The position numbers and the translations under genes are program-made. DNA of 25,399 bases from a virus: IMG/VR virus record IMGVR_UViG_3300040801_002993, positions 1 to 25,399 of that record; one strand, 5' to 3'. Shown here in pieces: positions 348 to 17,352 of the stretch (the first letter of the stretch is position 1; the number at the start of each line of letters is the position of its first letter). The notes below the pieces were generated by a model. That model worked only from the letters and a program-made list of their open reading frames with translations. It had not been told where the DNA came from and did no database searches.

Positions 348-911
348 ATGGATTATAAACAATTAAGATTGTTCAGCGAGATATTGATTGTAGAATCTGA
401 TATGAATGAATCTACAAAATTATTTCATCTGAATTTTATTCATAATGAAGCAACTATTCCGCAAATTAAAGCTTATATTATGGATGGTAGTATTGTTGAA
501 TTAGATGAACAAGCTGAACAAATAGTTAATGATCGATTTTCTTTACATGAAGTTAAAGTCAATAAAAAATATAGAGAGTTTGAACCCAAAATTAAAAAGT
601 TTTTAAAATATGGGCTGGTTGCTGTTTTGGGAGCAGGATTCGGAAGTATATTAACAATGGCTTTTCTTTTCATGTATAGGCATTTAACAGATAAATGTGT
701 AAAGGATTGTGGGGGCGTTTCTGCTACTAAAGTTTGTTACAATAGATGTTATTTAAAAGCTGCTCAAGAAGTTCTGGGAAGAATTAACAAAGAGATCAGT
801 AATATTGGAAAACTCCCTATGGAAAAAAGAGCTTCAACGTTACATAAATTACAAAAAGAAAAAAATATTTGGGAAGAAAAAGTTAATAAGTATAAAAAAA
901 GATTGGCTTAA
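348..911 (+). CDS. Membrane-anchored cysteine-hairpin protein, paralogue 1
   Basis: 187 aa, start preceded by GAGGA. It is the first of four related genes in the window. The N-terminal domain (about residues 1-65) has the family signature LNFIHNEAT...MDG.IV.LDEQAEQIVNDRF. A basic linker leads to one strong hydrophobic segment at about 88-110 (one transmembrane helix). Then come C117-x3-C121 and C130-x3-C134, and a long charged C-terminal helix. The twin CX3C pattern suggests a disulfide-pinned helical hairpin next to the membrane segment. The function is unknown to me. Because a paralogue follows the tail tube gene, I infer a virion or morphogenesis role. No signal peptide is visible, so orientation in the membrane cannot be set. 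Confidence 0.85.
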   Translation: MDYKQLRLFSEILIVESDMNESTKLFHLNFIHNEATIPQIKAYIMDGSIVELDEQAEQIVNDRFSLHEVKVNKKYREFEPKIKKFLKYGLVAVLGAGFGSILTMAFLFMYRHLTDKCVKDCGGVSATKVCYNRCYLKAAQEVLGRINKEISNIGKLPMEKRASTLHKLQKEKNIWEEKVNKYKKRLA

Positions 912-5743: not shown

Positions 5744-6664
5744 ATGTCATATTACAAAAATGAAATTCTAAAGTTAGCAAATTCTACATTATTAACGAAT
5801 CAAGAGATAGCAAGGATTGTTGGATGCTCTGATAGAACAGTTAGAAAGTATGCAGGATCATATGTATCAAGATGTCGAGTAAAGACATCAAAAGAAAATC
5901 AAGACCCCTTCCAAATTAGAAAAGTAGTTCTCCTTCCTGATATTCATTATCCTCACTATGAACAAAGAGTTATGGATGCTGTTGATGAATTTATTATTGA
6001 TTATGAACCTGACGAATTGGTTTATATGGGCGATCAAATTTCTCTAGATTGTATTTCATTTTGGAATAAAAGAAAACCGCTCTTAAAAGAAGGCCAAAGA
6101 TTATTAAAAGATTTTGAAGGATTCAATGAACAGATATTAATCAATCATGAAAACATTACAGGCCCAGAAACAAAAAGAGTATTTATGATTGGGAATCATG
6201 AGCAACGAATTAAATGGTATAATGAAGAACACCCTGAACTTGAAGGATTTGTTGATTTAGAAAGACATTTACAATTAGAAGCTAGAGGATATGAAATTAT
6301 TCCTTTCAATGAAATTTATCAGCTTGGTAAGTTGAGTATTATTCATGGATATTACTGGAACAAATATCATGCTGCAAAAACTCTTGAAGCATTTGAAGGG
6401 AACGTAGTATATGCTCACGTTCACAATCCTCAAATGTATGCAAAAGTTTCTCCTATCGATAGAAAGGGTTATCATACAGCTACATCATTGGGATGCCTAT
6501 GTAACATAAAACCAGACTATCATAAAAATGCTCCAAACTTCTGGATCAATCAATTTGGAGTTGTTGAATATTTACCTGCAAGCGGATTCTTTAATGTTTA
6601 TCCGATTACTATTATTGAAGGTTCATTTATGTGGAATGGTAGATATTACGGAAAAAATCTATAG
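5744..6664 (+). CDS. Helix-turn-helix plus metallophosphoesterase protein
   Basis: 306 aa, GGAG seven bases before the start. Residues about 18-38 (NQEIARIVGCSDRTVRKYAG) form a helix-turn-helix of the kind found in terminases and recombinases. From residue 60 the calcineurin-like metallophosphoesterase motifs appear in order: D66-x-H68 (LPDIHYPH), G96-D97 (YMGDQ), G150-N151-H152-E153, H201 (IIHGYYW) and H225-x-H227 (YAHVHNP). All metal ligands are present, so an active two-metal phosphoesterase is expected. The joined HTH suggests that it acts on or near nucleic acid, for example as a nuclease or end-processing enzyme, but the substrate is not shown. It is a single-gene unit ending at a hairpin region. 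Confidence 0.85.
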   Translation: MSYYKNEILKLANSTLLTNQEIARIVGCSDRTVRKYAGSYVSRCRVKTSKENQDPFQIRKVVLLPDIHYPHYEQRVMDAVDEFIIDYEPDELVYMGDQISLDCISFWNKRKPLLKEGQRLLKDFEGFNEQILINHENITGPETKRVFMIGNHEQRIKWYNEEHPELEGFVDLERHLQLEARGYEIIPFNEIYQLGKLSIIHGYYWNKYHAAKTLEAFEGNVVYAHVHNPQMYAKVSPIDRKGYHTATSLGCLCNIKPDYHKNAPNFWINQFGVVEYLPASGFFNVYPITIIEGSFMWNGRYYGKNL

Positions 6665-6665
6665 A

Positions 6666-6699
6666 AGAAAAAAAGGGTGAGGGGAATCACCCCCTCACC
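6666..6699 (-). terminator. Rho-independent terminator of minus-strand cassette 1
   Basis: GGTGAGGGG (6676-6684) and CCCCTCACC (6691-6699) form a perfect 9-bp stem with a 6-nt loop. On the minus strand the stem is followed by a seven-T tract and TCTTC, the usual layout of an intrinsic terminator. On the plus strand no T tract follows, so it serves the genes at 7700-6787, though the hairpin is also just past the plus-strand stop at 6664. The stretch 6700-6786 holds only a short TTCGG/CCGAA palindrome. Confidence 0.85.
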
Positions 6700-6786
6700 G
6701 TAACGGGCTCCAGAGCGATTCGGCTCCGAACATCCCACGACGAAGGCCCCCACCCTTAGTTTCCACCCATGTATGAATGGATGAAA

Positions 6787-7032
6787 TTATGAAACAAGTT
6801 CCGGAATGAAAAATCCTGTGAGTTGTTCTTTCCTTTCATATGTCCAAGGTTGATTCCAGATGATATCAAATGCTTGATCGATATCACCTTCCTTGATAAG
6901 TCGTTCGATGATCGGCCGGACCACTTCAGCACGACTTTTTCTTTTTGGTTTGCAAAATCGTTCGATGCTGATACCGGCAGTGTTCGGTCCGTAATAGCCA
7001 TAACGTCCCGTTCTCACCAAAATCTTTTTCAT
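6787..7032 (-). CDS. Small unrecognised protein, last gene of cassette 1
   Basis: 81 aa with a perfect AGGAGG five bases before the ATG. The N-terminus is basic and glycine/tyrosine-rich (MKKILVRTGRYGYYGPNTAG) and the rest looks like a compact helical domain (RAEVVRPIIERLIKEGDIDQAFDIIW). No membrane segment and no cysteine pairs. I do not recognise it. It follows the zinc-ribbon gene after 10 nt and ends just ahead of the terminator. The base composition is visibly less AT-rich than the flanking structural genes, as for the whole cassette, which hints at separate acquisition. Confidence 0.75.
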   Translation of the reverse strand: MKKILVRTGRYGYYGPNTAGISIERFCKPKRKSRAEVVRPIIERLIKEGDIDQAFDIIWNQPWTYERKEQLTGFFIPELVS

Positions 7033-7042
7033 GGAATCCTCC

Positions 7043-7393
7043 TTATCTTGGTTGTTTGATCCTTATCTGGATCCGTTTTCCCGTTTGCGGGATTGCAATT
7101 TGAATCGAATCTTTCATAATGAAAACTACCCCACCACTGAATCTGGAGTGCGGGTGACCTGGGTTGATGAAATCTGTTCTTGGAGGACTGGTCGGAAACC
7201 CCTTTACTTCGCTGATTTCAAAACCAGCCATATCAACAGCGAAAGGGATAATATCGCTGAATGGTAATTCCTCATCGGGTGTGAAATTCATCGGTCCTGC
7301 ACTTGCATGACAAACCTCACAGCTTCCTTTGTCTTCTTTCTTTTCCTGGATTGGATACCCTCGTTGTTTTCCACACTGGTCACAATACAGCAT
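7043..7393 (-). CDS. Small zinc-ribbon protein, cassette 1
   Basis: 116 aa from the ATG at 7393, chosen because GGAGGG lies just upstream. A longer version from 7435 lacks a ribosome site and would overlap the previous gene further. The N-terminus has C-x2-C (CDQCGK) and C-x2-C (CEVCHA) about 17 residues apart, a typical four-cysteine zinc ribbon. The remaining two thirds are mixed, ending in a beta-rich basic tail (QIAIPQTGKRIQIRIKQPR). No catalytic motif is seen. It overlaps the upstream zinc-ribbon gene by 14 nt, so translation is coupled. Small zinc proteins of phages often bind nucleic acid or a host protein, but nothing here shows which. Confidence 0.75.
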   Translation of the reverse strand: MLYCDQCGKQRGYPIQEKKEDKGSCEVCHASAGPMNFTPDEELPFSDIIPFAVDMAGFEISEVKGFPTSPPRTDFINPGHPHSRFSGGVVFIMKDSIQIAIPQTGKRIQIRIKQPR

Positions 7394-7700
7394 GTACCCT
7401 CCACTGATTTTTTTGAAGGACCTTAGCCAACTCATAGTTGGTGATGTTTCCCTTCATTAAGTGCCATTCCACCAGGTCTTTGCCGCAGGTATTGCAAACG
7501 TACCCCATACCGGGAATGCTGCTGTGTTTGCAGGTGTCGCTATCGATATCGCTCCCACAATTCCAGCATGATTTCTGATAATGAGGTTTCCATTGAGGTT
7601 CACCAGGCATATCGCAATCAGCACATGCAAAACATTGACATGAATCTGTACGATCTACCTCAACCATTTCCATTTCACACTTCGGACATTTCGGATTCAT
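7380..7700 (-). CDS. Multi-cysteine zinc-ribbon protein, first gene of cassette 1
   Basis: 106 aa with AGGAGG about 11 nt before the ATG. Cysteine pairs occur along the chain: CPKC at 5-8, CQCFACADC at about 21-29, CWNCG and CNTCG further on, with His residues between. This suggests two or three zinc sites. The C-terminal 30 residues are helical (GNITNYELAKVLQKNQWRVH) with no cysteine. I do not recognise a named family. It is the promoter-proximal gene of a three-gene minus-strand unit and its start is 42 nt downstream of the conserved leader element at 7742-7780. Confidence 0.75.
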   Translation of the reverse strand: MNPKCPKCEMEMVEVDRTDSCQCFACADCDMPGEPQWKPHYQKSCWNCGSDIDSDTCKHSSIPGMGYVCNTCGKDLVEWHLMKGNITNYELAKVLQKNQWRVHAVL

Positions 7701-7741
7701 ATTGAATATTCCCTCCTTTGTTGATGTTATTAAAAAGGCTT

Positions 7742-7780
7742 GACTACAATTCCTATCACTTATTAATATATATAGCAGTC
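7742..7780 (-). promoter_or_regulatory. Conserved leader element of cassette 1 (stem with AT-rich conserved loop)
   Basis: On the minus strand the element reads GACTGC, then CTATATATATTAAT-type core and TGATAGGAATT, then GTAGTC. The ends pair as a 6-bp stem (one G-U). The copy at 14698-14738 has the same core and most of the same loop, but its stem is GGATAAC/GTTATCC. Two base pairs differ with both partners changed. It starts 42 nt upstream of the first gene of the cassette (39 nt for the other copy). It may be a structured 5' leader or a promoter/operator; the TATATATTAAT core could serve as a -10 region. Confidence 0.6.
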
Positions 7781-7794
7781 GTATCTATCTTTAT

Positions 7795-7809
7795 AGAACA
7801 TAATATACA
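7795..7809 (+). promoter_or_regulatory. Candidate phage promoter, AGAACA-N3-TATACA
   Basis: AGAACA (7795-7800), three bases, then TATACA (7804-7809), preceded by TTTAT. The same layout occurs at 8791 and 14771, each time ahead of a plus-strand gene at the start of a unit. The distance to the chosen start codon is 60 nt. The TATA half resembles the T4-type late promoter core TATAAATA, but the AGAACA half is not part of that consensus. Confidence 0.5.
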
Positions 7810-7868
7810 AATCCAATCGACTTTAAATTTTGAGGGTTTAGTCGATGCCCTGTAAAAGGAGATTAGTC

Positions 7869-8705
7869 ATGACATACAAAGATCAGTTCGTCGCAGAAAT
7901 CAAAGTAAATGGTAAAATCCTAAGATTAAAGGATGATACTGCAACCCTTCCTTTTGGTTCAGAGTATTCCATTTTGTTAAAGAATTTAAACTCAAGACGT
8001 GCCTCCGTCAAAATTAGTATTGATGGTCAGGATGCTCTTGGGTATAGTTCGTTAATTCTTGATGCAAATGAATCAACTGAATTGCAAGGATTTCTATCCG
8101 GGAATGTTGTAAGAAATAGATTCAAGTTTATTCAAAAGACAAAAGAGATTCAAGAACATCGTGGTGATAAAATCGATGATGGTTTTATTAGAATTGAATT
8201 TGCTTTTGAAAAAGAAGAGCCTGAAATTATTAAAAAGACTATTATTCACGAAGATCATATATATCGTCGTAGAGAACATCCTCCATATTTTCACTGGAAT
8301 TATAACAATTGGTTTAGTGATAATTCATCAATTAAATATGGAGGCAGCGGCACTTTCACTTCGGCAGTTGGTCAATCAATGAATTCTTCCGGAGATAATG
8401 TTCGTGGTATTTCTGAGCAAAGTGTTAATATGGTTCAGTCAAGTGATATGTGTCTGGGACTTCCTGAACAAGATGAGGGAATTACTGTTAAGGGATCAGA
8501 ATGTAATCAGGAATTCAGATATACTGTAATGGGTGAACTTGAACAATCAAAAGTTATTATCATTAAGATGAGGGGAATGACTTCATCTGGAGACACAATC
8601 GAAACCCCTGTTACTGTTCAAACAAAACTTGAATGTAAAACTTGTGGAACAAAATCAAAATCATCATTCAAGTTCTGCCCTAATTGTGGAACATATTTAG
8701 AATAA
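7869..8705 (+). CDS. Conserved phage protein with beta-domain and C-terminal zinc ribbon
   Basis: 278 aa from the ATG at 7869, chosen for the AAAGGAG site; the ATG at 7845 has none. Residues about 1-110 form a beta-rich domain (FVAEIKVNGKILRL, LPFGSEYSILLKNLNSRRA, KISIDGQDAL). I have seen this pattern in other virus and phage proteins of unknown role. A low-complexity middle follows, rich in Ser, Gly and Asn with aromatic HPPYFHWNYNNW. A beta segment is next, then a classic zinc ribbon at the end: C-K-T-C-G and C-P-N-C-G. The protein looks like a surface or scaffolding component with a small zinc tail. It heads the plus-strand run that includes the sheath gene, so a virion role is likely but not shown. 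Confidence 0.75.
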   Translation: MTYKDQFVAEIKVNGKILRLKDDTATLPFGSEYSILLKNLNSRRASVKISIDGQDALGYSSLILDANESTELQGFLSGNVVRNRFKFIQKTKEIQEHRGDKIDDGFIRIEFAFEKEEPEIIKKTIIHEDHIYRRREHPPYFHWNYNNWFSDNSSIKYGGSGTFTSAVGQSMNSSGDNVRGISEQSVNMVQSSDMCLGLPEQDEGITVKGSECNQEFRYTVMGELEQSKVIIIKMRGMTSSGDTIETPVTVQTKLECKTCGTKSKSSFKFCPNCGTYLE

Positions 8706-8716
8706 AGAGTTATTGC

Positions 8717-8773
8717 GCAGACCGGGTGTGACTTGTATAGATAATTGGTAGCTCTATACCTCATCCGGTCTGC
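8717..8773 (+). ncRNA. Strong two-stem RNA hairpin between structural genes
   Basis: The outer stem GCAGACCGGGTG (8717-8728) pairs with CATCCGGTCTGC (8762-8773), 12 bp with one G-U. An internal loop leads to an inner perfect stem GTATAG (8735-8740) / CTATAC (8754-8759) with a 13-nt loop (8741-8753). No T tract follows (TTTCCCG), so it is not a typical terminator. It is far more GC-rich in its stem than the surroundings. Candidates are a processing or stability site, an attenuator or a protein-binding site. The loop bears AATTGGTAG, similar to a tRNA D-loop, but no tRNA fold closes. The rest of 8706-8848 holds only the promoter motif at 8791. Confidence 0.6.
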
Positions 8774-8790
8774 TTTCCCGCCATAAAATC

Positions 8791-8805
8791 AGAACAAAAT
8801 ATAAA
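8791..8805 (+). promoter_or_regulatory. Candidate phage promoter, AGAACA-N3-TATAAA
   Basis: AGAACA (8791-8796), AAA, TATAAA (8800-8805). The 15-nt string is identical to that at 14771-14785. It lies 43 nt before the start codon of the next gene and just after the hairpin at 8717-8773, so a new transcript may begin here. Confidence 0.55.
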
Positions 8806-8848
8806 GATGATACGCCTATCATTTAACTACCTTAGAAGGAAATAGACT

Positions 8849-9559
8849 ATGGATAATGTCAAAGACACGATTATAGAAGCAAGGGATTATTATGGAGATA
8901 ATTGTCTTGTTGATCAAGTGAATGCTAATACATCCCAAGTTAGAGGACCAAAGGGTGAAGTTCATGTATTCGAGATTGACGACAATGGAAATAAACGCCT
9001 TGTAAGAAAAAGCAATTTGGTTGTTTACTCCGGGCGTGAAATGTTAGCTCAAGTATTGATGAATTTAAACAACTCAAATGTAACCTCAACACAAAATGAA
9101 TTTATTACTTGGTTCGGTCTTGGCGATGGTGGTGTTAGACCTGCTGATCCACTTGATCCAGTTCCGCCAGTAAACAATGATGAATATCTTTATTCACCAA
9201 TTCCGGTAAGTGATACAACAGGATCTGTTTATGCTGATCCTCATTCTGCTGGTGACCCAACACAGGGTGGCGGTACATATCCTGCTAATGGTTCCTATGT
9301 TAAAGCATTTGACACTAATGGCGTTACCTTCCAACAGGATGTATTGAATGATAGCAAATATTTAGTTGTTCAAATAACTACTACAATTGGTCCAAATGAT
9401 GCAAATGGATATACTCTAAATGAAGCAGGCTTGTTTTCAGCAGAGAGTTCTAATGGTGGGTATAGCGGACACTTTACACTATTTGCAAGAGTAACATTTC
9501 CATCATTAATTAAAACTACAGATAGACGATTAATTTTTGTTTGGTATTTATATGTATAA
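8849..9559 (+). CDS. Putative tail/virion structural protein
   Basis: 236 aa, AAGGA upstream of the start. The N-terminal half has a nucleic-type mixed domain (EVHVFEIDDNGNKRLVRKSNLVVYSGREMLAQVL). The middle is a Gly/Pro/Asp-rich loop region. The C-terminal part has 'YTLNEAGLF' and 'FTLFARVTFPSLIKTTDRRLIFVWYLYV'. This ending (a 'NEAGLF' turn, then '.ar..fp.i.Kt....l...W') is familiar from phage collar, fibre and baseplate proteins. No membrane segment or enzyme motif. It precedes the sheath gene by about 110 nt and has its own promoter-like site. A tail or fibre component is likely; the exact part cannot be named. Confidence 0.65.
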   Translation: MDNVKDTIIEARDYYGDNCLVDQVNANTSQVRGPKGEVHVFEIDDNGNKRLVRKSNLVVYSGREMLAQVLMNLNNSNVTSTQNEFITWFGLGDGGVRPADPLDPVPPVNNDEYLYSPIPVSDTTGSVYADPHSAGDPTQGGGTYPANGSYVKAFDTNGVTFQQDVLNDSKYLVVQITTTIGPNDANGYTLNEAGLFSAESSNGGYSGHFTLFARVTFPSLIKTTDRRLIFVWYLYV

Positions 9560-9667
9560 AGGATAAACTTATTATTAAAGGATTTTATAAAACTTAGACC
9601 TGGAGAGAAAGGAAACGAACAATATAGAGTTAATAAAAAATGAGAAATATTTGTGGAGGAAAAAATA

Positions 9668-11653
9668 ATGGCTGCTAATGTATCTCCGGGTGTATTCACC
9701 AAGATTATTGACCTATCAGCTTTCATTCAAGCTGTTCCGTCAACAATCGGATTTTTAGCTGGTTTTACAAGAAAAGGGCGTGATAATCAACTTATCTTTG
9801 TTGGTTCAAGATCTGATTTAATTTCAGAATGGGGCGAGCCTGATATTACAGAATTCGGAAAGAATTTTGGTCAAGGTCCATATGAAGCATATAACTATTT
9901 AGGAGAAGCTGGATCTCTTTATTGGATGAGATGCCTTCCTGATAATGCTACATATTCAAATATCAGAATTGATTCACAGTTAGCTGCTTCTGATGCGTCA
10001 GCAAGTATTACAATTACATATGTTGAAGGATTGAATACATCAGATGAAATTAAAACAAATTTAATTACATCTGGTGATACAAAACCTATTGGAATGCTTT
10101 ATCCAATTGGTAGAGGTGATTTTTATAATTCAATTGGAGTTAGATTTACAGAGTTTTCGAACCCAACTGTTTTTGGTGTTTATGTAATGGACATCTATGA
10201 AAAACAGTCAGATGGAGATGATGTAATTATTGAGTCATTCAATGTTTCGTTTGATCCGTTTGCAGTTGATAATGCTGGTGATTCGATTTTCATTGGAAGT
10301 ATTCTTGAAACATATTCATCTGTTTTAAGATTTGAAATGGAATTACCAAGTGGTTTATATACTGATGGTTATGATTTAGTTGCTAAAGTTTTTGATAAAG
10401 AAATTGGTAATGTAAATGTTGTGCTAACTTCTGGGTCAGCTACAATTAGCGATAACAAACAGGATTTTTCCGATTGGGAAACTGATCCTGAAACTGGTAA
10501 TGCTAATTATGTTGTTATTGCAAAAGATGCTAAAGGAAACACAATTTATGGTTGGTTGGGCATTTCTGATTCAGCACAAGATGATGAAATTATTAATGTT
10601 TTTACAGATAGAAATTTAACAGGTGCAACACAAGGATGGAATGGAGCAGTTTCTTCATTTGATGTTAATTCAGCAATTGAATATAGAATTCAAAAGTCAA
10701 ATACAAGTGTGGCATCAGCATTTATTTCGGATACTCCTGTTCCATTGAAGAAAGGTTCTGAGGGGGATTTGAGAACTGCATCTGGTGATGTTGACACAGC
10801 AGAAGCCGAAACACTATTAGAGCAAGCATATAACGGTCTTTTGACAAATCCAGTAACAGGCGAATTAGAAGATCAAATTTATGATACAGAAACAGTTTAT
10901 TTCAGTCTTGTATTTGATGCTGGTTATCCTGCTGATGTAAAGACTGCGATTAGTGGTCTATGTACAACAAGACGTGACTGTGTTGGTATTCTTGATAATG
11001 GTGATAACAATTCTGTTAATGCTGCCTTAGCTGCAAGAAATAATACAAATACATTTAACAACTTCTATGTTGCTCTATACGAATCATTTAATAAAGTATC
11101 AGATCCATTTACAGGCGAAGATGTATGGTTCTCACCAATTTACCATATGTCTTACATTATTCCAAGAAATGATAATGTTGCTGAATTGTGGTTTGCTCCA
11201 GCAGGTTTTAATAGAGCAGCTATTGATTCAATTAAAGAACTTCGTTACAATCCAAGACTTGGTCAGAGAGATCAGCTATACTTGAAACAACTAAATCCAA
11301 TTGTTAAGTTTAGCAATGGTTATGTTGTTTGGGGGCAGTTGACAGCTCAGGCTAAAGCGAGTGCATTACAAGACCTGAATATTGTCAGACTTGTTCTTTA
11401 CTGCAAGAGAGCGATTGAACAATTCTGCCGCTTCTTTATCTTTGAGCAGAATGATCCTATTACATGGGGTCAGGTAAGTGGTGCAATCACAGACTTCTTA
11501 GAAGTTATTAAACAGAAAAGAGGTTTGGACAGTTATTCAATTGATGTTGGCGCAACTGATTACGAAAGAAAAACAAAGAGATTCCATGTTAATATTATTC
11601 TACAGCCAACAAGAACAGTTGAACAAATTGAATTGAACTTCTTCATTCAATAA
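9668..11653 (+). CDS. Tail sheath protein (T4 gp18-like)
   Basis: 661 aa from the ATG at 9668, chosen for GGAGG seven bases before it; a GTG at 9653 in the same frame would overlap that site. The size is close to T4 gp18 (659 aa). The N-terminus (ANVSPGVFTKIIDLS) has the usual 'PGV...D.S' opening. The last about 170 residues carry the conserved sheath core: IIPRNDNVAELWFAPAGFNR, LRYNPRLGQRDQLYLKQLNP, CKRAIEQFCRFFIFEQND and a beta strand end (FHVNIILQPTRTVEQIELNF). It polymerises round the tail tube and contracts on infection. The 108-nt leader 9560-9667 is AT-rich and holds only a weak CGAACA...TATAG promoter-like string at 9616. A strong hairpin terminator follows. Confidence 0.95.
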   Translation: MAANVSPGVFTKIIDLSAFIQAVPSTIGFLAGFTRKGRDNQLIFVGSRSDLISEWGEPDITEFGKNFGQGPYEAYNYLGEAGSLYWMRCLPDNATYSNIRIDSQLAASDASASITITYVEGLNTSDEIKTNLITSGDTKPIGMLYPIGRGDFYNSIGVRFTEFSNPTVFGVYVMDIYEKQSDGDDVIIESFNVSFDPFAVDNAGDSIFIGSILETYSSVLRFEMELPSGLYTDGYDLVAKVFDKEIGNVNVVLTSGSATISDNKQDFSDWETDPETGNANYVVIAKDAKGNTIYGWLGISDSAQDDEIINVFTDRNLTGATQGWNGAVSSFDVNSAIEYRIQKSNTSVASAFISDTPVPLKKGSEGDLRTASGDVDTAEAETLLEQAYNGLLTNPVTGELEDQIYDTETVYFSLVFDAGYPADVKTAISGLCTTRRDCVGILDNGDNNSVNAALAARNNTNTFNNFYVALYESFNKVSDPFTGEDVWFSPIYHMSYIIPRNDNVAELWFAPAGFNRAAIDSIKELRYNPRLGQRDQLYLKQLNPIVKFSNGYVVWGQLTAQAKASALQDLNIVRLVLYCKRAIEQFCRFFIFEQNDPITWGQVSGAITDFLEVIKQKRGLDSYSIDVGATDYERKTKRFHVNIILQPTRTVEQIELNFFIQ

Positions 11654-11661
11654 TCTAACCG

Positions 11662-11700
11662 AAAAAAAAGGGTCGTCAGCTTAATGCCGGCGACCCTTTT
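11662..11700. terminator. Bidirectional terminator between sheath gene and cassette 2
   Basis: GGGTCGTCAGC (11670-11680) pairs with GCCGGCGACCC (11686-11696) round a 5-nt TTAAT loop; one mismatch and one G-U occur. The stem is flanked by eight A on the left and four T plus C-rich sequence on the right, so it can stop transcripts from both the sheath gene and the minus-strand cassette, which converge here. The T tract on the minus-strand side is the longer. Confidence 0.85.
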
Positions 11701-11719
11701 CCCCTCCCGAAGGACACCT

Positions 11720-12205
11720 CTAAGGCGCCAACGGCATTCCCAATGGAACAACTGAAAGGTTGTGTTTTAACGATCCGTCTAACCATTTCGTTGTATAGAC
11801 CAAATAACACAACACATTCTTTTCTGCATCATACCAACGCCCAATCTTCATAACTTTACTCCCGATTGATTTACTGACGCTAGCAATGTTTTTATTTGTT
11901 GATGTATTGATGATCATCTTACCATCTTTGTCTCTTGGGATTTCTCCTGTAAGACGTGCTGCAATCGATGTATTGCTTGGGTCGGCTAATGCGAGAATTT
12001 TCCCGCTTTTGATTGTTGTGAAATATATGGACACAAACGGATTATCGGGGTCATCAACCCGAATGATGTTAATAACATCATTCCCCTGAACCATTCTGTT
12101 TACAGCATCAACCTCGCCAATTTTGACTGCTTGCCCTGCTGACGCGATTCCAGCACAGAAAAGAATGATGATAAATGCTGCAATGTATTCCTTTACCGTT
12201 TTCAT
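11720..12205 (-). CDS. CreA-family secreted protein
   Basis: 161 aa with AGGAGG four bases before the ATG. Residues 1-23 are a clear Sec signal peptide ending ASA, with likely cleavage before G24. The mature part matches what I know of bacterial CreA: IGEVDAVNRM..., a DDPDNPFVSIYF strand, the hallmark LADPSNTSIAARLTGEI, and near the end 'WYDAEKNVLCYLVYTTKW' and 'DGSLKHNLSVVP'. CreA is a periplasmic protein of unknown function from proteobacteria, about the same length (157 aa in E. coli). Here it is the last gene of a phage minus-strand cassette. The base composition is visibly less AT-rich than the structural genes, which suggests host origin. Role during infection is unknown. Confidence 0.85.
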   Translation of the reverse strand: MKTVKEYIAAFIIILFCAGIASAGQAVKIGEVDAVNRMVQGNDVINIIRVDDPDNPFVSIYFTTIKSGKILALADPSNTSIAARLTGEIPRDKDGKMIINTSTNKNIASVSKSIGSKVMKIGRWYDAEKNVLCYLVYTTKWLDGSLKHNLSVVPLGMPLAP

Positions 12206-12213
12206 AAAACCTC

Positions 12214-12873
12214 CTAATCAATTTTTTCAGCGTTGGTTAATGCTATGTCAAGATCTAACTGTGTTTCTGCTGCTTTGTTTGCTGTATCAATTGCATCATC
12301 AATTATATCTTGAGTTAATAGCTGACAGACATTTACGATTATAAAATTCACATTTCTCGCTACCTGTCCTCTAACAAAAATTCTATTCGGATCTTTATCA
12401 TTTATATGACTTTTATATGTGTCACCTTGAATTCTTAATGGATTTGGAATCGATCTAACTATTAAATTTAATTCATCTAATAACGAAAGAAAATACAAAC
12501 ATGATGAAACTGATAGTCTATGATTATTTAATGATGCAAACACAGGTGAAGATGATACTGCAATACATAATTTTTTAACTTGATTTATATCAACTGATTC
12601 ATGTTCTACAATACCAGCATGTTCTCTTAAGCCAAAGAATGACTCAATTTTAAATCCCGGTGGTATTGCAACAAAATCTAATAATGTATAATCATCAACA
12701 TTGTTGTTAAAACCTTCATCCTGAGCATCAAATTTTATATCATCAAGACTCATTTCTTTAAACAAATCATCTATATCAACTGTAACTTTTTTTCTTTTAG
12801 TGTTTGCTGATCCTGTAGGACGGAACAGACCTGAAAATATTCCCATGCTCAATTTCTGCAAAGTATTCGCCAT
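12214..12873 (-). CDS. Unrecognised cassette 2 protein
   Basis: 219 aa from the ATG at 12873, chosen because GGTGA stands just before it. A start at 12885 or 12846 is possible. The N-terminus has a basic patch (TKRKKVTVDID) then an acidic run (DLFKEMSLDDIKFDAQDE). The middle and end look like a folded helical/beta domain (IPPGFKIESFFGLREHAGIVE, VKKLCIAVSSSPVFASL, LYFLSLLDELNLIVRSIPNP), and the C-terminus is helical. No motif is recognised and no membrane segment is clear. Its start lies inside the end of the preceding TNSSS gene (overlap about 77 nt), so the two are probably coupled. It precedes the CreA-like gene by 8 nt. Confidence 0.75.
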   Translation of the reverse strand: MANTLQKLSMGIFSGLFRPTGSANTKRKKVTVDIDDLFKEMSLDDIKFDAQDEGFNNNVDDYTLLDFVAIPPGFKIESFFGLREHAGIVEHESVDINQVKKLCIAVSSSPVFASLNNHRLSVSSCLYFLSLLDELNLIVRSIPNPLRIQGDTYKSHINDKDPNRIFVRGQVARNVNFIIVNVCQLLTQDIIDDAIDTANKAAETQLDLDIALTNAEKID

Positions 12874-13303
12874 CTTCGTCACCATAATGAAAGAGGTAAA
12901 TAAAATGTTCTTCGTTTAACTTTTTTAAGAAACCAATTGCAATTTCTTCTGCAATGTCAAATCTGCGGCGTTCCCTTTCACCCCACATTTGTTCTCGCCA
13001 TTGAGGATTATCAAGTAATTCTTTTTTGCTTATACCCTCTCTTTCACAAAACTTTGTTTCGTAATCCATATAGTCATCTTCTTGTTCAATATAACCATTA
13101 CTTATTTCTTCAGCTAATTTTTTAACAACTATTTTTGATTTAAATCTCATAGGAGTTTGATTTTTTGCATCCCCAAATATAGTATGTGAATATTTCTCGG
13201 GTATATATTTTTCAACATCATCTATAGTTTCAATTTTTTGAGGGAATGCAACTATAAACGATGAACTTGAACTATTTGTTACAAAATCTGTTTTGATTTT
13301 CAT
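12797..13303 (-). CDS. TDFVTNSSS-leader protein 2
   Basis: 168 aa from the ATG at 13303, which overlaps the stop of the upstream gene as ATGA; the ATG at 13315 lacks spacing for a ribosome site. The first residues are MKIKTDFVTNSSSSSFIVAF, the same opening as the upstream gene (MRIKTDFVTNSSSTCFVVM). The body is unlike the neighbour: charged, helical, with CEREGISKKELLDNPQWREQ and EEIAIGFLKKLNEEHFIYLF. I recall this Ser-rich opening on many otherwise unrelated hypothetical proteins of bacteria and phages. Its purpose is not known to me. It shares an operon with a radical SAM protein. Function unassigned. Confidence 0.8.
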   Translation of the reverse strand: MKIKTDFVTNSSSSSFIVAFPQKIETIDDVEKYIPEKYSHTIFGDAKNQTPMRFKSKIVVKKLAEEISNGYIEQEDDYMDYETKFCEREGISKKELLDNPQWREQMWGERERRRFDIAEEIAIGFLKKLNEEHFIYLFHYGDEDGEYFAEIEHGNIFRSVPSYRISKH

Positions 13304-13641
13304 CCATCTATCCATCCTTCTTCTATATGATGAACTTGACCTAAATAACCAAATTTTTGTTGTAATTGATTTAGAGATCGGGCTTTGAATTGCCCCAATG
13401 TTTCATTATCATCCATCTTTGTATATTCAATTCCAATCATTATATTATCAGCATAATAAGAATCAGGGCCAAATGAATAGACAAGATCTGTGCTCTTCAA
13501 TTCTTCATCTAATTCTTCATATAAATCTTCACGTTCTTCTAAATCATACTTTGCTAATAGCTCATCAATATCTAATGTTGTTCCCATTACGACGAAACAC
13601 GTTGAGCTTGAATTTGTTACAAAATCTGTTTTAATCCTCAT
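13300..13641 (-). CDS. TDFVTNSSS-leader protein 1
   Basis: 113 aa, GGGGGAAG before the start, 16 nt after the radical SAM gene. The opening MRIKTDFVTNSSSTCFVVM matches that of the next gene, including a 21-nt identical DNA stretch (13612-13632 against 13274-13294). The rest is acidic and small (DELLAKYDLEEREDLYEELDEELKSTDLVYSFGPDSYYADN, MIGIEYTKMDDNETLGQF) and has no similarity to the partner that I can see. The protein has no signal peptide, since the hydrophobic run is too short and follows the polar Ser block. A shared N-terminal leader on different bodies suggests a tag read by a common partner. That is inference. Confidence 0.8.
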   Translation of the reverse strand: MRIKTDFVTNSSSTCFVVMGTTLDIDELLAKYDLEEREDLYEELDEELKSTDLVYSFGPDSYYADNIMIGIEYTKMDDNETLGQFKARSLNQLQQKFGYLGQVHHIEEGWIDG

Positions 13642-13657
13642 TTTTTACTTCCCCCTT

Positions 13658-14659
13658 TTACAGTCCATACGGACAGTTATTTCTTTCCTTCTTTAAGCTA
13701 CTTCTGAATACTTTAAATTGTGTTTTATTTTGCCACACATCTTGAATAGAATTTTTACGAATGTCACACCCCCACATTATTTTATTGCCAAAACTACAAG
13801 GCATCATCTTCATATCAGGGGTAATATAAGCTGACATTCTTGCACCTTCACATGTATCTATACTCATGGCCTGTAAGTCTGTAGGGGTTACATATTTTGT
13901 AACGTGATTAACTAAGCAGCTATCCATTCCAATTTTGAATGGAGCTTTTGGTGTAAAGACTACGTCTGCAAAATGTTGAAGGTGATAATCTTTGGGTATT
14001 AAATCTAATCGTTTTCCTGCTCCTTGTGGTTTGAATAGAAGAAAAATTACAGCGTTTAATTCTTTAACTGGAAATGGCGCCCTATAACAATTGCTGCAAT
14101 GTTCCCAAGGATTTACTCCTGTAATAATATCAATGCATTTTTGAAATGTTTTCTTTGAAAATATTTGATGAATATTTGTTTTGACCCCAGCGTTGATTAA
14201 GTTTGTTAGGGCTCTGTATGTTTCTACCCATTCATAATCACTAACTGCTACTGCTCCACACATTTTTGATATTTCAATTTCATCTTCTGTTAGATTTATA
14301 CCGCTTGTTGTATAGCTTGGAACGACTTCATTTTTTACACAATATTCAACTATCTCTTTAAAATTCTCATGCTTATTTGGGTCCCCACGCCCTCCTAAAG
14401 CGACTTGAGTAACATGATGCTTTACTTGTTTGATGATACGTTTAAAATCTTTTAACCTCATATTCGGTTGTTTAATGTGTCCCTGATAACAAAAACTACA
14501 AGCATTGTGACACGATCCCATAATCCCTATATCAAGTAGGGTCGGTAAATCTGTTACGAATGGATCCTTATGCCCATTTACTCCTGATAATATTTCAAGC
14601 CCTGTTTTCTTATTGAATAAAATCATGTATCTATCATTTACAAAACGTTTCCAAGACAT
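13658..14659 (-). CDS. Radical SAM protein with SPASM-like C-terminal cysteine domain
   Basis: 333 aa. C50-x3-C54-x2-C57 (SCHNACSFCYQ) is the 4Fe-4S radical SAM motif. 'VALGGRGDPN' at 86-95 fits the SAM-binding GGxxP strand in degenerate form. C-terminal cysteines C248, C270, C288, C298 and C329 follow the layout of SPASM/twitch auxiliary-cluster domains: 'CEGARMSAYITPDMKMMPCSFG', then 'CDIRKNSIQDVWQNK..FKVFR'. Enzymes of this type (PqqE, AlbA, anSME) modify peptides or proteins. It is the first gene of cassette 2, preceded by the conserved leader element, and is directly followed by the two TNSSS proteins, which are natural substrate candidates. A tRNA or small-molecule substrate cannot be excluded. 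The ribosome site is weak (AAAGGA, 14 nt upstream). Confidence 0.9.
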   Translation of the reverse strand: MSWKRFVNDRYMILFNKKTGLEILSGVNGHKDPFVTDLPTLLDIGIMGSCHNACSFCYQGHIKQPNMRLKDFKRIIKQVKHHVTQVALGGRGDPNKHENFKEIVEYCVKNEVVPSYTTSGINLTEDEIEISKMCGAVAVSDYEWVETYRALTNLINAGVKTNIHQIFSKKTFQKCIDIITGVNPWEHCSNCYRAPFPVKELNAVIFLLFKPQGAGKRLDLIPKDYHLQHFADVVFTPKAPFKIGMDSCLVNHVTKYVTPTDLQAMSIDTCEGARMSAYITPDMKMMPCSFGNKIMWGCDIRKNSIQDVWQNKTQFKVFRSSLKKERNNCPYGL

Positions 14660-14697
14660 TCTAATTTTTTCATTCCTTTCGTTAAAGTAAAAAAAAT

Positions 14698-14738
14698 GGA
14701 TAACAACTCTTTTCAGTAATTAATATATATAGTTATCC
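14698..14738 (-). promoter_or_regulatory. Conserved leader element of cassette 2 (second copy)
   Basis: On the minus strand GGATAAC and GTTATCC close a 7-bp stem round a 27-nt loop with CTATATATATTAAT at its start and TGAAAAGAGTT at its end. Most loop positions are the same as in 7742-7780, while two stem pairs are changed on both sides (A-T to T-A, T-A to C-G) and one A-T becomes G-T. The element ends 39 nt before the radical SAM start codon. The G-T pair would be a wobble only if the minus strand is the RNA. The rest of 14660-14817 holds just the plus-strand promoter motif. Confidence 0.6.
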
Positions 14739-14770: not shown

Positions 14771-14785
14771 AGAACAAAATATAAA
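14771..14785 (+). promoter_or_regulatory. Candidate phage promoter, AGAACA-N3-TATAAA
   Basis: AGAACA (14771-14776), AAA, TATAAA (14780-14785), preceded by TTTTT. It is the same 15 bases as at 8791-8805. It lies 33 nt before the start of the HAD-like gene and restarts plus-strand transcription after cassette 2. A second AT box (TTATACAT, 14791-14798) follows. Confidence 0.55.
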
Positions 14786-16125: not shown

Positions 16126-17352
16126 ATGTATAAATCAAATATTAGCGAATCGCTTCAATTTCTTGTTTTTTGTCGTGAAGCGTTAGCACAAATTATCGAT
16201 GCATCATCAATGGCATCTTCTGATAAAACAAATACCAAAAACTTTTTATATAATGAAGCAACAGATTATCAAATTATGTCATTGGTCGTTAGAGGAACTC
16301 TACCAGAAGAAAAAAGTAATATCCTTGATGAAGTTACTTTGTTTGATGAGTTAAAAGAACAAGTCATTAGTAACATTGATGTTCTTTCTGAACTTACAGA
16401 TCTGGACTCTATTGGTAACTTTTTACTGGAAGTTGATACTGTTTATCCTTCTGCTGGTTCTGCAAGACCCGTTCTTGAGTTTTTAAGCGAGAATGGAATG
16501 CCTGTAAAAGAGGAATTGACTCCAACAGATATTGCAAAATTTGCAAGAAAATGGGGTAGAAAAATTCAAGACATTCCAAACCCAGAAGAAGTCGCAAGAC
16601 GAGCTCTTACAGCTGCTGCAAAAAAATATGATGATGCTGAACAAGCTGTAAAAGCCGCTGCTAGAGGCGTCGCTCAAAGAGCAAAAATTGGCGTTGGTCA
16701 ATTTATGAAAGATTCTGACCCATCATTAGATAGATTGAGAGCACAAAAAGGAAATCTTGGTTCTGGTGGGCAGGATATGTCTCCAATGCAAAAAGCATCA
16801 TTAGCCCAAACAATTAGAAAGGGCGATCCACAATTTGCAAGAATGCAAGCTCAAAAAGGTGGAATGGGTGCAGGCATTAAAGATCTTAGTCAATCACAAA
16901 AAGATCAATTAAGCAAGCAAACATATGGAACAGTTGGCCACTATTCCAGAAAAGCAAAAGAAAGTTGGGATAGTTTGATGGCTGCCTTTAAAGCAAAACA
17001 CCCTAATGCAGCACAAGCAATGGCAGACTTCTCTAAGAAAGCAGAAGAATTTGCAAAGAGCGGTGAAGGTAAAGCTATTGCGGCAGTAGCGTTAATTGCT
17101 TTAATTAGTTATCTTTCTTACAAAGTATATAAAGCAAAATTTAGCCAAGCAGCTAAAGCATGTTCAGGCAAGAAAGGCCCTGAGAAAAAACAATGTATGT
17201 CACAATTTAAGAAACAAGCTCTTATGGCCCAAGCTCAAGATATGCAAAAAGCATCATCTGCATGTGCTAAAACAAAAGATCCTGCAAAATGTAAAGCAGG
17301 TATTCAAGCTAAAATTAGAAAACTTCAAATGAAAGCATCTAAAATTAGATAA
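16126..17352 (+). CDS. Membrane-anchored cysteine-hairpin protein, long paralogue 4
   Basis: 408 aa, AGGAG upstream. The first about 80 residues are a distant copy of the N-terminal domain of the genes at 348-2105 (NFLYNEATDYQIMSLVVRGTL, then an acidic LDE segment). A helical middle follows. Two tandem repeats of about 35 residues lie at about 198-232 and 234-268 (DPSLDRLRAQKG / DPQFARMQAQKG). One transmembrane helix is at about 315-333 (GKAIAAVALIALISYLSYK). Then come C346-x10-C357 and C380-x8-C389 in a basic, helical tail. The CAKTKDPAKC turn is close to CKKSKDPKGC of paralogue 3. Placed between tube and baseplate genes, it is probably a tail or ejection-related protein (inference). Confidence 0.85.
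   Translation: MYKSNISESLQFLVFCREALAQIIDASSMASSDKTNTKNFLYNEATDYQIMSLVVRGTLPEEKSNILDEVTLFDELKEQVISNIDVLSELTDLDSIGNFLLEVDTVYPSAGSARPVLEFLSENGMPVKEELTPTDIAKFARKWGRKIQDIPNPEEVARRALTAAAKKYDDAEQAVKAAARGVAQRAKIGVGQFMKDSDPSLDRLRAQKGNLGSGGQDMSPMQKASLAQTIRKGDPQFARMQAQKGGMGAGIKDLSQSQKDQLSKQTYGTVGHYSRKAKESWDSLMAAFKAKHPNAAQAMADFSKKAEEFAKSGEGKAIAAVALIALISYLSYKVYKAKFSQAAKACSGKKGPEKKQCMSQFKKQALMAQAQDMQKASSACAKTKDPAKCKAGIQAKIRKLQMKASKIR

What the first reader, a model, noticed from the sequence alone, without database searches (positions are those of the whole stretch)
6666..14738. Two inverted accessory cassettes of the same design inside the structural gene block
Cassette 1 (7780 down to 6666) and cassette 2 (14738 down to 11662) run against the plus-strand tail genes. 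Each has a copy of the same leader element about 40 nt before its first gene, closely packed non-structural genes, and a hairpin terminator at its end; after each, a plus-strand AGAACA promoter motif restarts the late genes. This suggests a modular unit with its own regulator and timing (a phage regulon of morons), and cassette 2 parts the sheath gene from the tube gene.
Basis: partly seen in the sequence, partly recalled or inferred. Interest (0 to 1): 0.75.

Follow-up and report, generated by a model that had tools for sequence, protein, structure and literature searches.

The report
Antisense operons in jumbo-phage tail block
In a little-known group of giant bacterial viruses, small swappable gene sets sit backwards inside the tail-building genes, each with its own on-switch of a type that usually acts early in infection, and one set carries an uncharacterised enzyme together with the tagged proteins it probably modifies.

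Summary
Two minus-strand cassettes interrupt the plus-strand tail genes. Each has the element CTATATATATTAATNANTGA 53-55 nt before its first gene, packed genes and a hairpin terminator; a plus-strand AGAACA motif lies back to back with each element.

Relatives show the design is real. Of 42 sheath-to-tube intervals, 40 hold an antisense cassette and 38 the element; most other tail junctions lack it. A third slot is filled in about a quarter of relatives, and one full/empty pair shows the insert ending at the element.

The interpretation changes. The element is genome-wide (5-18 copies per large relative, mostly intergenic, strongly strand-biased). Most large relatives encode two multisubunit RNA polymerases, like AR9. 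The element resembles AR9's early promoter and AGAACA its late promoter, so I read the cassettes as early-promoter antisense operons in variable slots. Timing is inferred, not measured.

Cassette 2 pairs a radical SAM/SPASM enzyme with proteins sharing an N-terminal KIKTDFVTNSSSSSF tag. Of 80 bacterial or archaeal loci found by the tagged proteins alone, 67 hold a homologue of the enzyme. I found no specific family model or paper for this pair.

The parts
7756..7775 (-). Early-type promoter element of cassette 1 (CTATATATATTAATAAGTGA); predicted transcription start G at 7757
   Evidence: exact pattern match, 0 in 100 shuffles; consensus from relatives; start predicted by analogy with AR9
7380..7700 (-). 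Cassette 1 gene 1, 106 aa, zinc-ribbon-like; homologues in the same slot of relatives
   Evidence: (weak zinc-ribbon hits)
7043..7435 (-). Cassette 1 gene 2, 130 aa, function unknown
6787..7032 (-). Cassette 1 gene 3, 81 aa, function unknown
6669..6699 (-). Terminator of cassette 1: 10-bp hairpin followed by a T run
7795..7809 (+). Late-type promoter motif AGAACATAATATACA before gene 7845, divergent from the cassette 1 element
8791..8805 (+). Late-type promoter motif AGAACAAAATATAAA before gene 8849; this slot is empty in the window and holds a cassette in some relatives
14713..14732 (-). Early-type promoter element of cassette 2 (CTATATATATTAATTACTGA); predicted transcription start G at 14714
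13658..14659 (-). Cassette 2 gene 1: radical SAM/SPASM enzyme, 333 aa (phrog_7293)
   Evidence: PF04055 and PF13186, phrog_7293
13300..13641 (-). Cassette 2 gene 2: 113 aa protein with N-terminal tag MRIKTDFVTNSSSTCF
12797..13315 (-). Cassette 2 gene 3: 172 aa protein (likely start at 13303) with tag MKIKTDFVTNSSSSSF (phrog_7397)
12214..12885 (-). Cassette 2 gene 4: 223 aa protein, function unknown, common in this slot in relatives
11720..12205 (-). Cassette 2 gene 5: CreA-family protein with a signal-like N terminus
   Evidence: PF05981, E 4.7e-24
11662..11703 (.). Hairpin with A/T runs between the convergent sheath gene and cassette 2: likely two-way terminator
   Evidence: z -3.8 (minus) and -4.8 (plus)
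14771..14785 (+). Late-type promoter motif AGAACAAAATATAAA before the HAD and tube genes, divergent from the cassette 2 element

Best explanation
[quoted passage not shown] Each unit starts at the element CTATATATATTAATNANTG(+1)A, most likely read by the virion (early) polymerase, runs antisense to the late tail genes and stops at its own terminator. The late genes on the other strand restart from a back-to-back late promoter, AGAACANNATATAAA, most likely read by the non-virion polymerase. The units sit in defined intergenic slots and are gained, lost and refilled as units that include the element. SHOWN: anatomy, two recurrent motif classes, slot conservation, full and empty slots, divergent pairing, two polymerase gene sets in five of six large relatives. 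INFERRED: that the motifs are promoters, which polymerase reads which, early versus late timing, and that the window's own phage (a fragment) has both polymerases. For cassette 2 I further infer that the radical SAM/SPASM enzyme modifies the proteins with the shared N-terminal tag.
For: Element before both cassettes, none in shuffles. Slot census on loci chosen by the sheath only: 40/42 antisense, 38/42 element; cassette 1 slot 20/24 and 22/24; facultative slot 10/44 and 9/44; element in 0/66 gene 8849-to-sheath intervals and 0/32 tube-to-17380 intervals. Full/empty pair with the insert edge at the element and the late promoter common to both. 166 divergent element-late pairs against 1 on the same strand. 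26 of 28 elements intergenic in genomes 92-94% coding; strand bias. Two motif classes found without prior pattern. Two beta and two beta-prime genes in five of six large relatives, AR9 as positive control. AR9 early AAATATATATTAT-(6N)-G and late AACA-(6N)-TA/G (PMC5312081). A perfect late motif leads the virion-like polymerase genes in G002.
Against: No expression data. The non-virion-like polymerase set, expected to be early, has no element within 30 kb, though it lies downstream on the same strand of the element that follows the other set. Some element-led genes look like lysis genes (SLT transglycosylase; a weak spanin-like lipoprotein). Only 5-18 elements per large record against 41 early starts in AR9. 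Spacings differ by about one base from AR9. The sheath-to-tube cassette is nearly fixed (40/42), so it is less 'mobile' than a classical accessory insert.
Confidence: 0.7

Rival explanations
1. The element is a promoter, but of a middle, late or continuously active class (for example read by the non-virion polymerase with another factor), so the cassettes are regulated apart from the tail genes but are not early.
For: Lysis-type genes directly after elements; no element near the non-virion-like polymerase genes; AR9 itself has genes with both promoter types.
Against: Close likeness in kind to the AR9 early consensus, and the other motif class already matches the AR9 late consensus; no third motif class seen.
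Confidence: 0.2
2. The shared sequence is an RNA leader (attenuator or riboswitch) in the transcript, not a promoter.
For: Both window copies sit in short inverted repeats and 53-55 nt before a start codon.
Against: Flanking stems are hardly longer than in shuffled pairings across 245 copies (mean 4.48 against 4.27); no Rfam match; fold z only about -1.1 to -1.4; the conserved block is contiguous and AT-only apart from its C and G.
Confidence: 0.04
3. The element is the end of a mobile DNA unit (an integration or recombination site), and its place before genes is secondary.
For: In L114 the insert ends within three bases of the element.
Against: No recombinase recognised in the window cassettes and no second copy at the other end; the element also precedes genes outside such inserts.
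Confidence: 0.05

Closest known systems
Early and late promoters of Bacillus jumbo phage AR9 (phiKZ/AR9 strategy: virion and non-virion multisubunit RNA polymerases)
   Same: AT-rich contiguous early-type block with a conserved G a few bases downstream; AACA-type late motif; two sets of multisubunit polymerase genes; an early antisense gene (gp119, early promoter) inside the plus-strand structural block of AR9, back to back with late genes.
   Different: Different consensus (CTATATATATTAATNANTG, AGAACANNATATAAA) and spacing; beta and beta-prime appear unsplit in the relatives checked, whereas AR9 has them split; AR9 has no cassette between sheath and the next virion gene.
Phage morons
   Same: Own start signal and terminator, accessory content, presence in some relatives and absence in others at the same site.
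   Different: Antisense inside the late block, all with one genome-wide promoter class; the sheath-to-tube unit is nearly always present.
Radical SAM/SPASM peptide maturases paired with tagged precursors
   Same: Radical SAM plus SPASM domains next to small proteins with one shared N-terminal motif.
   Different: Far below every NCBIfam maturase cut-off; the tag sits on bodies of many lengths and kinds, one a leucine-rich repeat; no modified residue known.

Membership tests
AR9/phiKZ-type early (virion polymerase) promoter | Contiguous AT-rich block with conserved G shortly downstream, upstream of operons | tested here: met
   Logo and comparison with annotated AR9 early promoters; part of the logo is biased because many loci were fetched with the pattern itself
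AR9/phiKZ-type early (virion polymerase) promoter | Phage encodes two multisubunit RNA polymerases | tested here: met
   Five of six large relatives with the element have two PF00562 and two PF04998 genes; not testable in the window fragment
AR9/phiKZ-type early (virion polymerase) promoter | Transcription begins there early and without new protein synthesis | not testable with these tools
   needs infected cells
AR9/phiKZ-type early (virion polymerase) promoter | Non-virion polymerase genes are early, so should follow such a promoter | tested here: inconclusive
   No element within 30 kb of the non-virion-like set in G001 and G002, but the run it lies in follows an element
AR9-type late promoter | AACA-(6N)-TA/G upstream of virion genes | tested here: inconclusive
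   GAACA upstream of 221 of 237 late-gene orthologues against 13-26% in controls, but the downstream part reads ATATAAA and does not show the (6N)TA/G spacing clearly
Moron | Independent unit with its own promoter and terminator | tested here: met
   Anatomy only; promoter activity not shown
Moron | Present in some and absent from other close relatives at the same place | tested here: met
   Facultative slot 10/44 and a full/empty pair; the sheath slot is nearly fixed, one clean empty case L168
Moron | Dispensable for the phage | not testable with these tools
   needs a cultured phage and gene removal
Radical SAM/SPASM maturase with tagged substrate | Radical SAM and SPASM domains | tested here: met
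   PF04055 and PF13186 over cut-off
Radical SAM/SPASM maturase with tagged substrate | Genetic linkage to the tagged protein beyond this phage | tested here: met
   67 of 80 bacterial or archaeal loci found by the tagged proteins alone, 55 directly adjacent; no random-locus background measured
Radical SAM/SPASM maturase with tagged substrate | Member of a named NCBIfam maturase family | tested here: not met
   All maturase equivalog scores far under cut-off
Radical SAM/SPASM maturase with tagged substrate | Chemical modification of the tagged protein | not testable with these tools
   needs expression and mass spectrometry

The most novel reading that the evidence does not exclude
Cassette 2 carries an undescribed protein-tagging system: a radical SAM/SPASM enzyme that chemically modifies the N-terminal tag KIKTDFVTNSSSSSF shared by otherwise unrelated proteins. 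It is widespread in anaerobic bacteria, also occurs in archaea, and is carried by these jumbo phages (as an antisense operon in the late block) and by T4-like phages.
Probability: 0.5. Interest if true: 0.8.

Novelty: new variant of a known kind. Interest (0 to 1): 0.6.

Why it matters
It gives a readable promoter code (element against AGAACA) for an uncultivated jumbo-phage group, so early and late genes could be proposed from sequence alone in many metagenomic contigs. It shows defined slots where accessory genes come and go inside the most conserved part of a phage genome without cutting off the late genes. Its main cargo points to an enzyme-and-tag pair shared by phages, bacteria and archaea that could be tested in an ordinary expression strain.

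Tried and rejected
RNA-leader reading: no Rfam match, stems not conserved much beyond chance. Sigma-70 promoters: fewer hits than in shuffles. Single-subunit RNA polymerase PF00940: none, but its control rang nowhere, so absence is not shown. Sigma factor PF04542: none in six large relatives. A too-strict first scan for the element found nothing. Megablast against named phages: no match. Fold searches of the 172-aa tagged protein and of the 223-aa protein: nothing at E<=0.001. Profile of the tagged proteins against solved structures: only a weak hit to isopentenyl phosphate kinase, E 0.004, not credited. My first assignment of the two polymerase sets, by closeness of elements, was reversed by direct comparison with AR9. 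Literature: nothing on the tag. The metagenomic Caudovirales lineage with multisubunit polymerase (PMC7481178) was considered as the group but membership was not tested.

Full report
CHECK. The window is a 25,399-base virus record from a contractile-tailed phage, with sheath, tube, baseplate-wedge and hub homologues. Two minus-strand gene blocks interrupt the plus-strand tail genes, at 7775-6669 and 14732-11662. The shared element matches exactly at both, and 100 shuffles gave none. It lies 53-55 nt before the first start codon. Each block ends at a strong hairpin. Plus-strand AGAACA..ATAT motifs lie at 7795 and 14771, divergent from the elements; a third at 8791 has no cassette.

RELATIVES. 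Using only loci chosen by the sheath, the interval between sheath and HAD or tube holds antisense genes in 40 of 42 and the element in 38. The cassette 1 interval holds them in 20 and 22 of 24. The interval before gene 8849 holds them in 10 and 9 of 44. The element is absent from 66 gene 8849-to-sheath intervals and from the other tail junctions tested. Cargo varies: usually the radical SAM enzyme, often with tagged proteins, the 223-aa family and CreA, but some units have one gene of about 91-109 aa and others add genes of about 260-460 aa. L168 lacks the sheath cassette (83-bp gap). L034 and L024 have a third cassette, with its own element, in the slot that is empty in the window. In the pair L114 (full) and L042 (empty) the shared stretch AAAGATCCAAACCTGTTAGATAATTAGAACAAAATATAAAACCTA begins three bases from the element's C, so the unit ends at its own start signal and leaves the late promoter intact.

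WHAT THE ELEMENT IS. It is not private to cassettes. Six large relatives carry 5-18 copies, strongly biased to one strand. In the two genomes read in full, 26 of 28 lie between genes although 92-94% of the DNA is called coding by a simple gene caller. Within 120 bases, 166 element-late pairs are divergent and 1 is on one strand. Without any prior pattern, the enriched 8-mers upstream of genes fall into TATATATA and AGAACAAA classes, besides ribosome-site and tRNA words. Five of the six large relatives encode two beta and two beta-prime RNA polymerase genes, the mark of phiKZ/AR9-type phages; AR9 served as positive control. AR9 early promoters read AAATATATATTAT-(6N)-G and late ones AACA-(6N)-TA/G (Lavysh et al. 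2017, PMC5312081). The two motif classes here match these in kind. In G002 the virion-like polymerase genes follow a perfect late motif, as expected for a virion protein. Against this, the non-virion-like set has no nearby element, and some element-led genes look like lysis genes. I hold the whole reading at about 0.7; the early timing is its weakest step.

CARGO OF CASSETTE 2. The radical SAM/SPASM enzyme is in many relatives followed by one or two proteins that begin MKIKTDFVTNSSSSSF; L035, from a 214-kb contig, has four in a row, and a minority of relatives have none beside the enzyme. A scan of 84,980 bacterial and archaeal genomes with the tagged proteins alone found 104 loci. Of the 80 kept, 67 hold a strong homologue of the phage enzyme (E<1e-30), 55 of them directly adjacent on the same strand. 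The enzyme was not part of that query; no random background was measured. The tag sits on bodies of many kinds, one a leucine-rich repeat. In a predicted model of the window's long tagged protein, residues 1-10 are disordered and the body is well ordered. T4-like enterobacterial phages hold both genes about 20 kb apart, with the tag as MKIRSGFVSNSSSSSF. No Pfam or NCBIfam model names the tag, and the enzyme reaches only generic domain models.

VERDICT. The 'own regulator' part is replaced by a genome-wide two-promoter system of a known kind. The enzyme-tag pair is the part most likely to be new.

Noticed in passing
Relatives G001 and G002 (L231-L255): G002 155783-162880 and 194018-199680; G001 67573-74829 and 31964-38348: Both sets of phage RNA polymerase beta and beta-prime genes appear as single unsplit genes (about 890-1360 aa), whereas AR9 and phiKZ have them split.
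   Followed up: partly
window 348-911, 928-1542, 1560-2105, 16126-17352: Several tail-block proteins share an N-terminal stretch (LQLLNFIKEEATDxQVKALLMDGKIVQLDEQAEEIVNDRF-like) on different bodies: a second shared N-terminal module, unlike the cassette 2 tag.
   Followed up: no
window 7001-8000: Cassette 1 has higher G+C (about 0.41) than the rest of the window (about 0.28-0.38), as for recently acquired DNA.
   Followed up: no
upstream of AGAACA motifs in relatives: A second conserved patch, CTAA, lies about 17-20 bases before GAACA and may be part of the late promoter.
   Followed up: no
L011:15974 and L026:11213: The first gene after the element begins like a type IV pilin precursor (MKNQKGFTFIEIIAVIVII).
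   Followed up: no
window 5744-6664: A metallophosphoesterase (phrog_221) lies on the plus strand inside the tail block just before cassette 1.
   Followed up: no
L035:11020-12547: Four tandem tagged proteins with different bodies follow one radical SAM gene in a 214-kb viral contig.
   Followed up: partly
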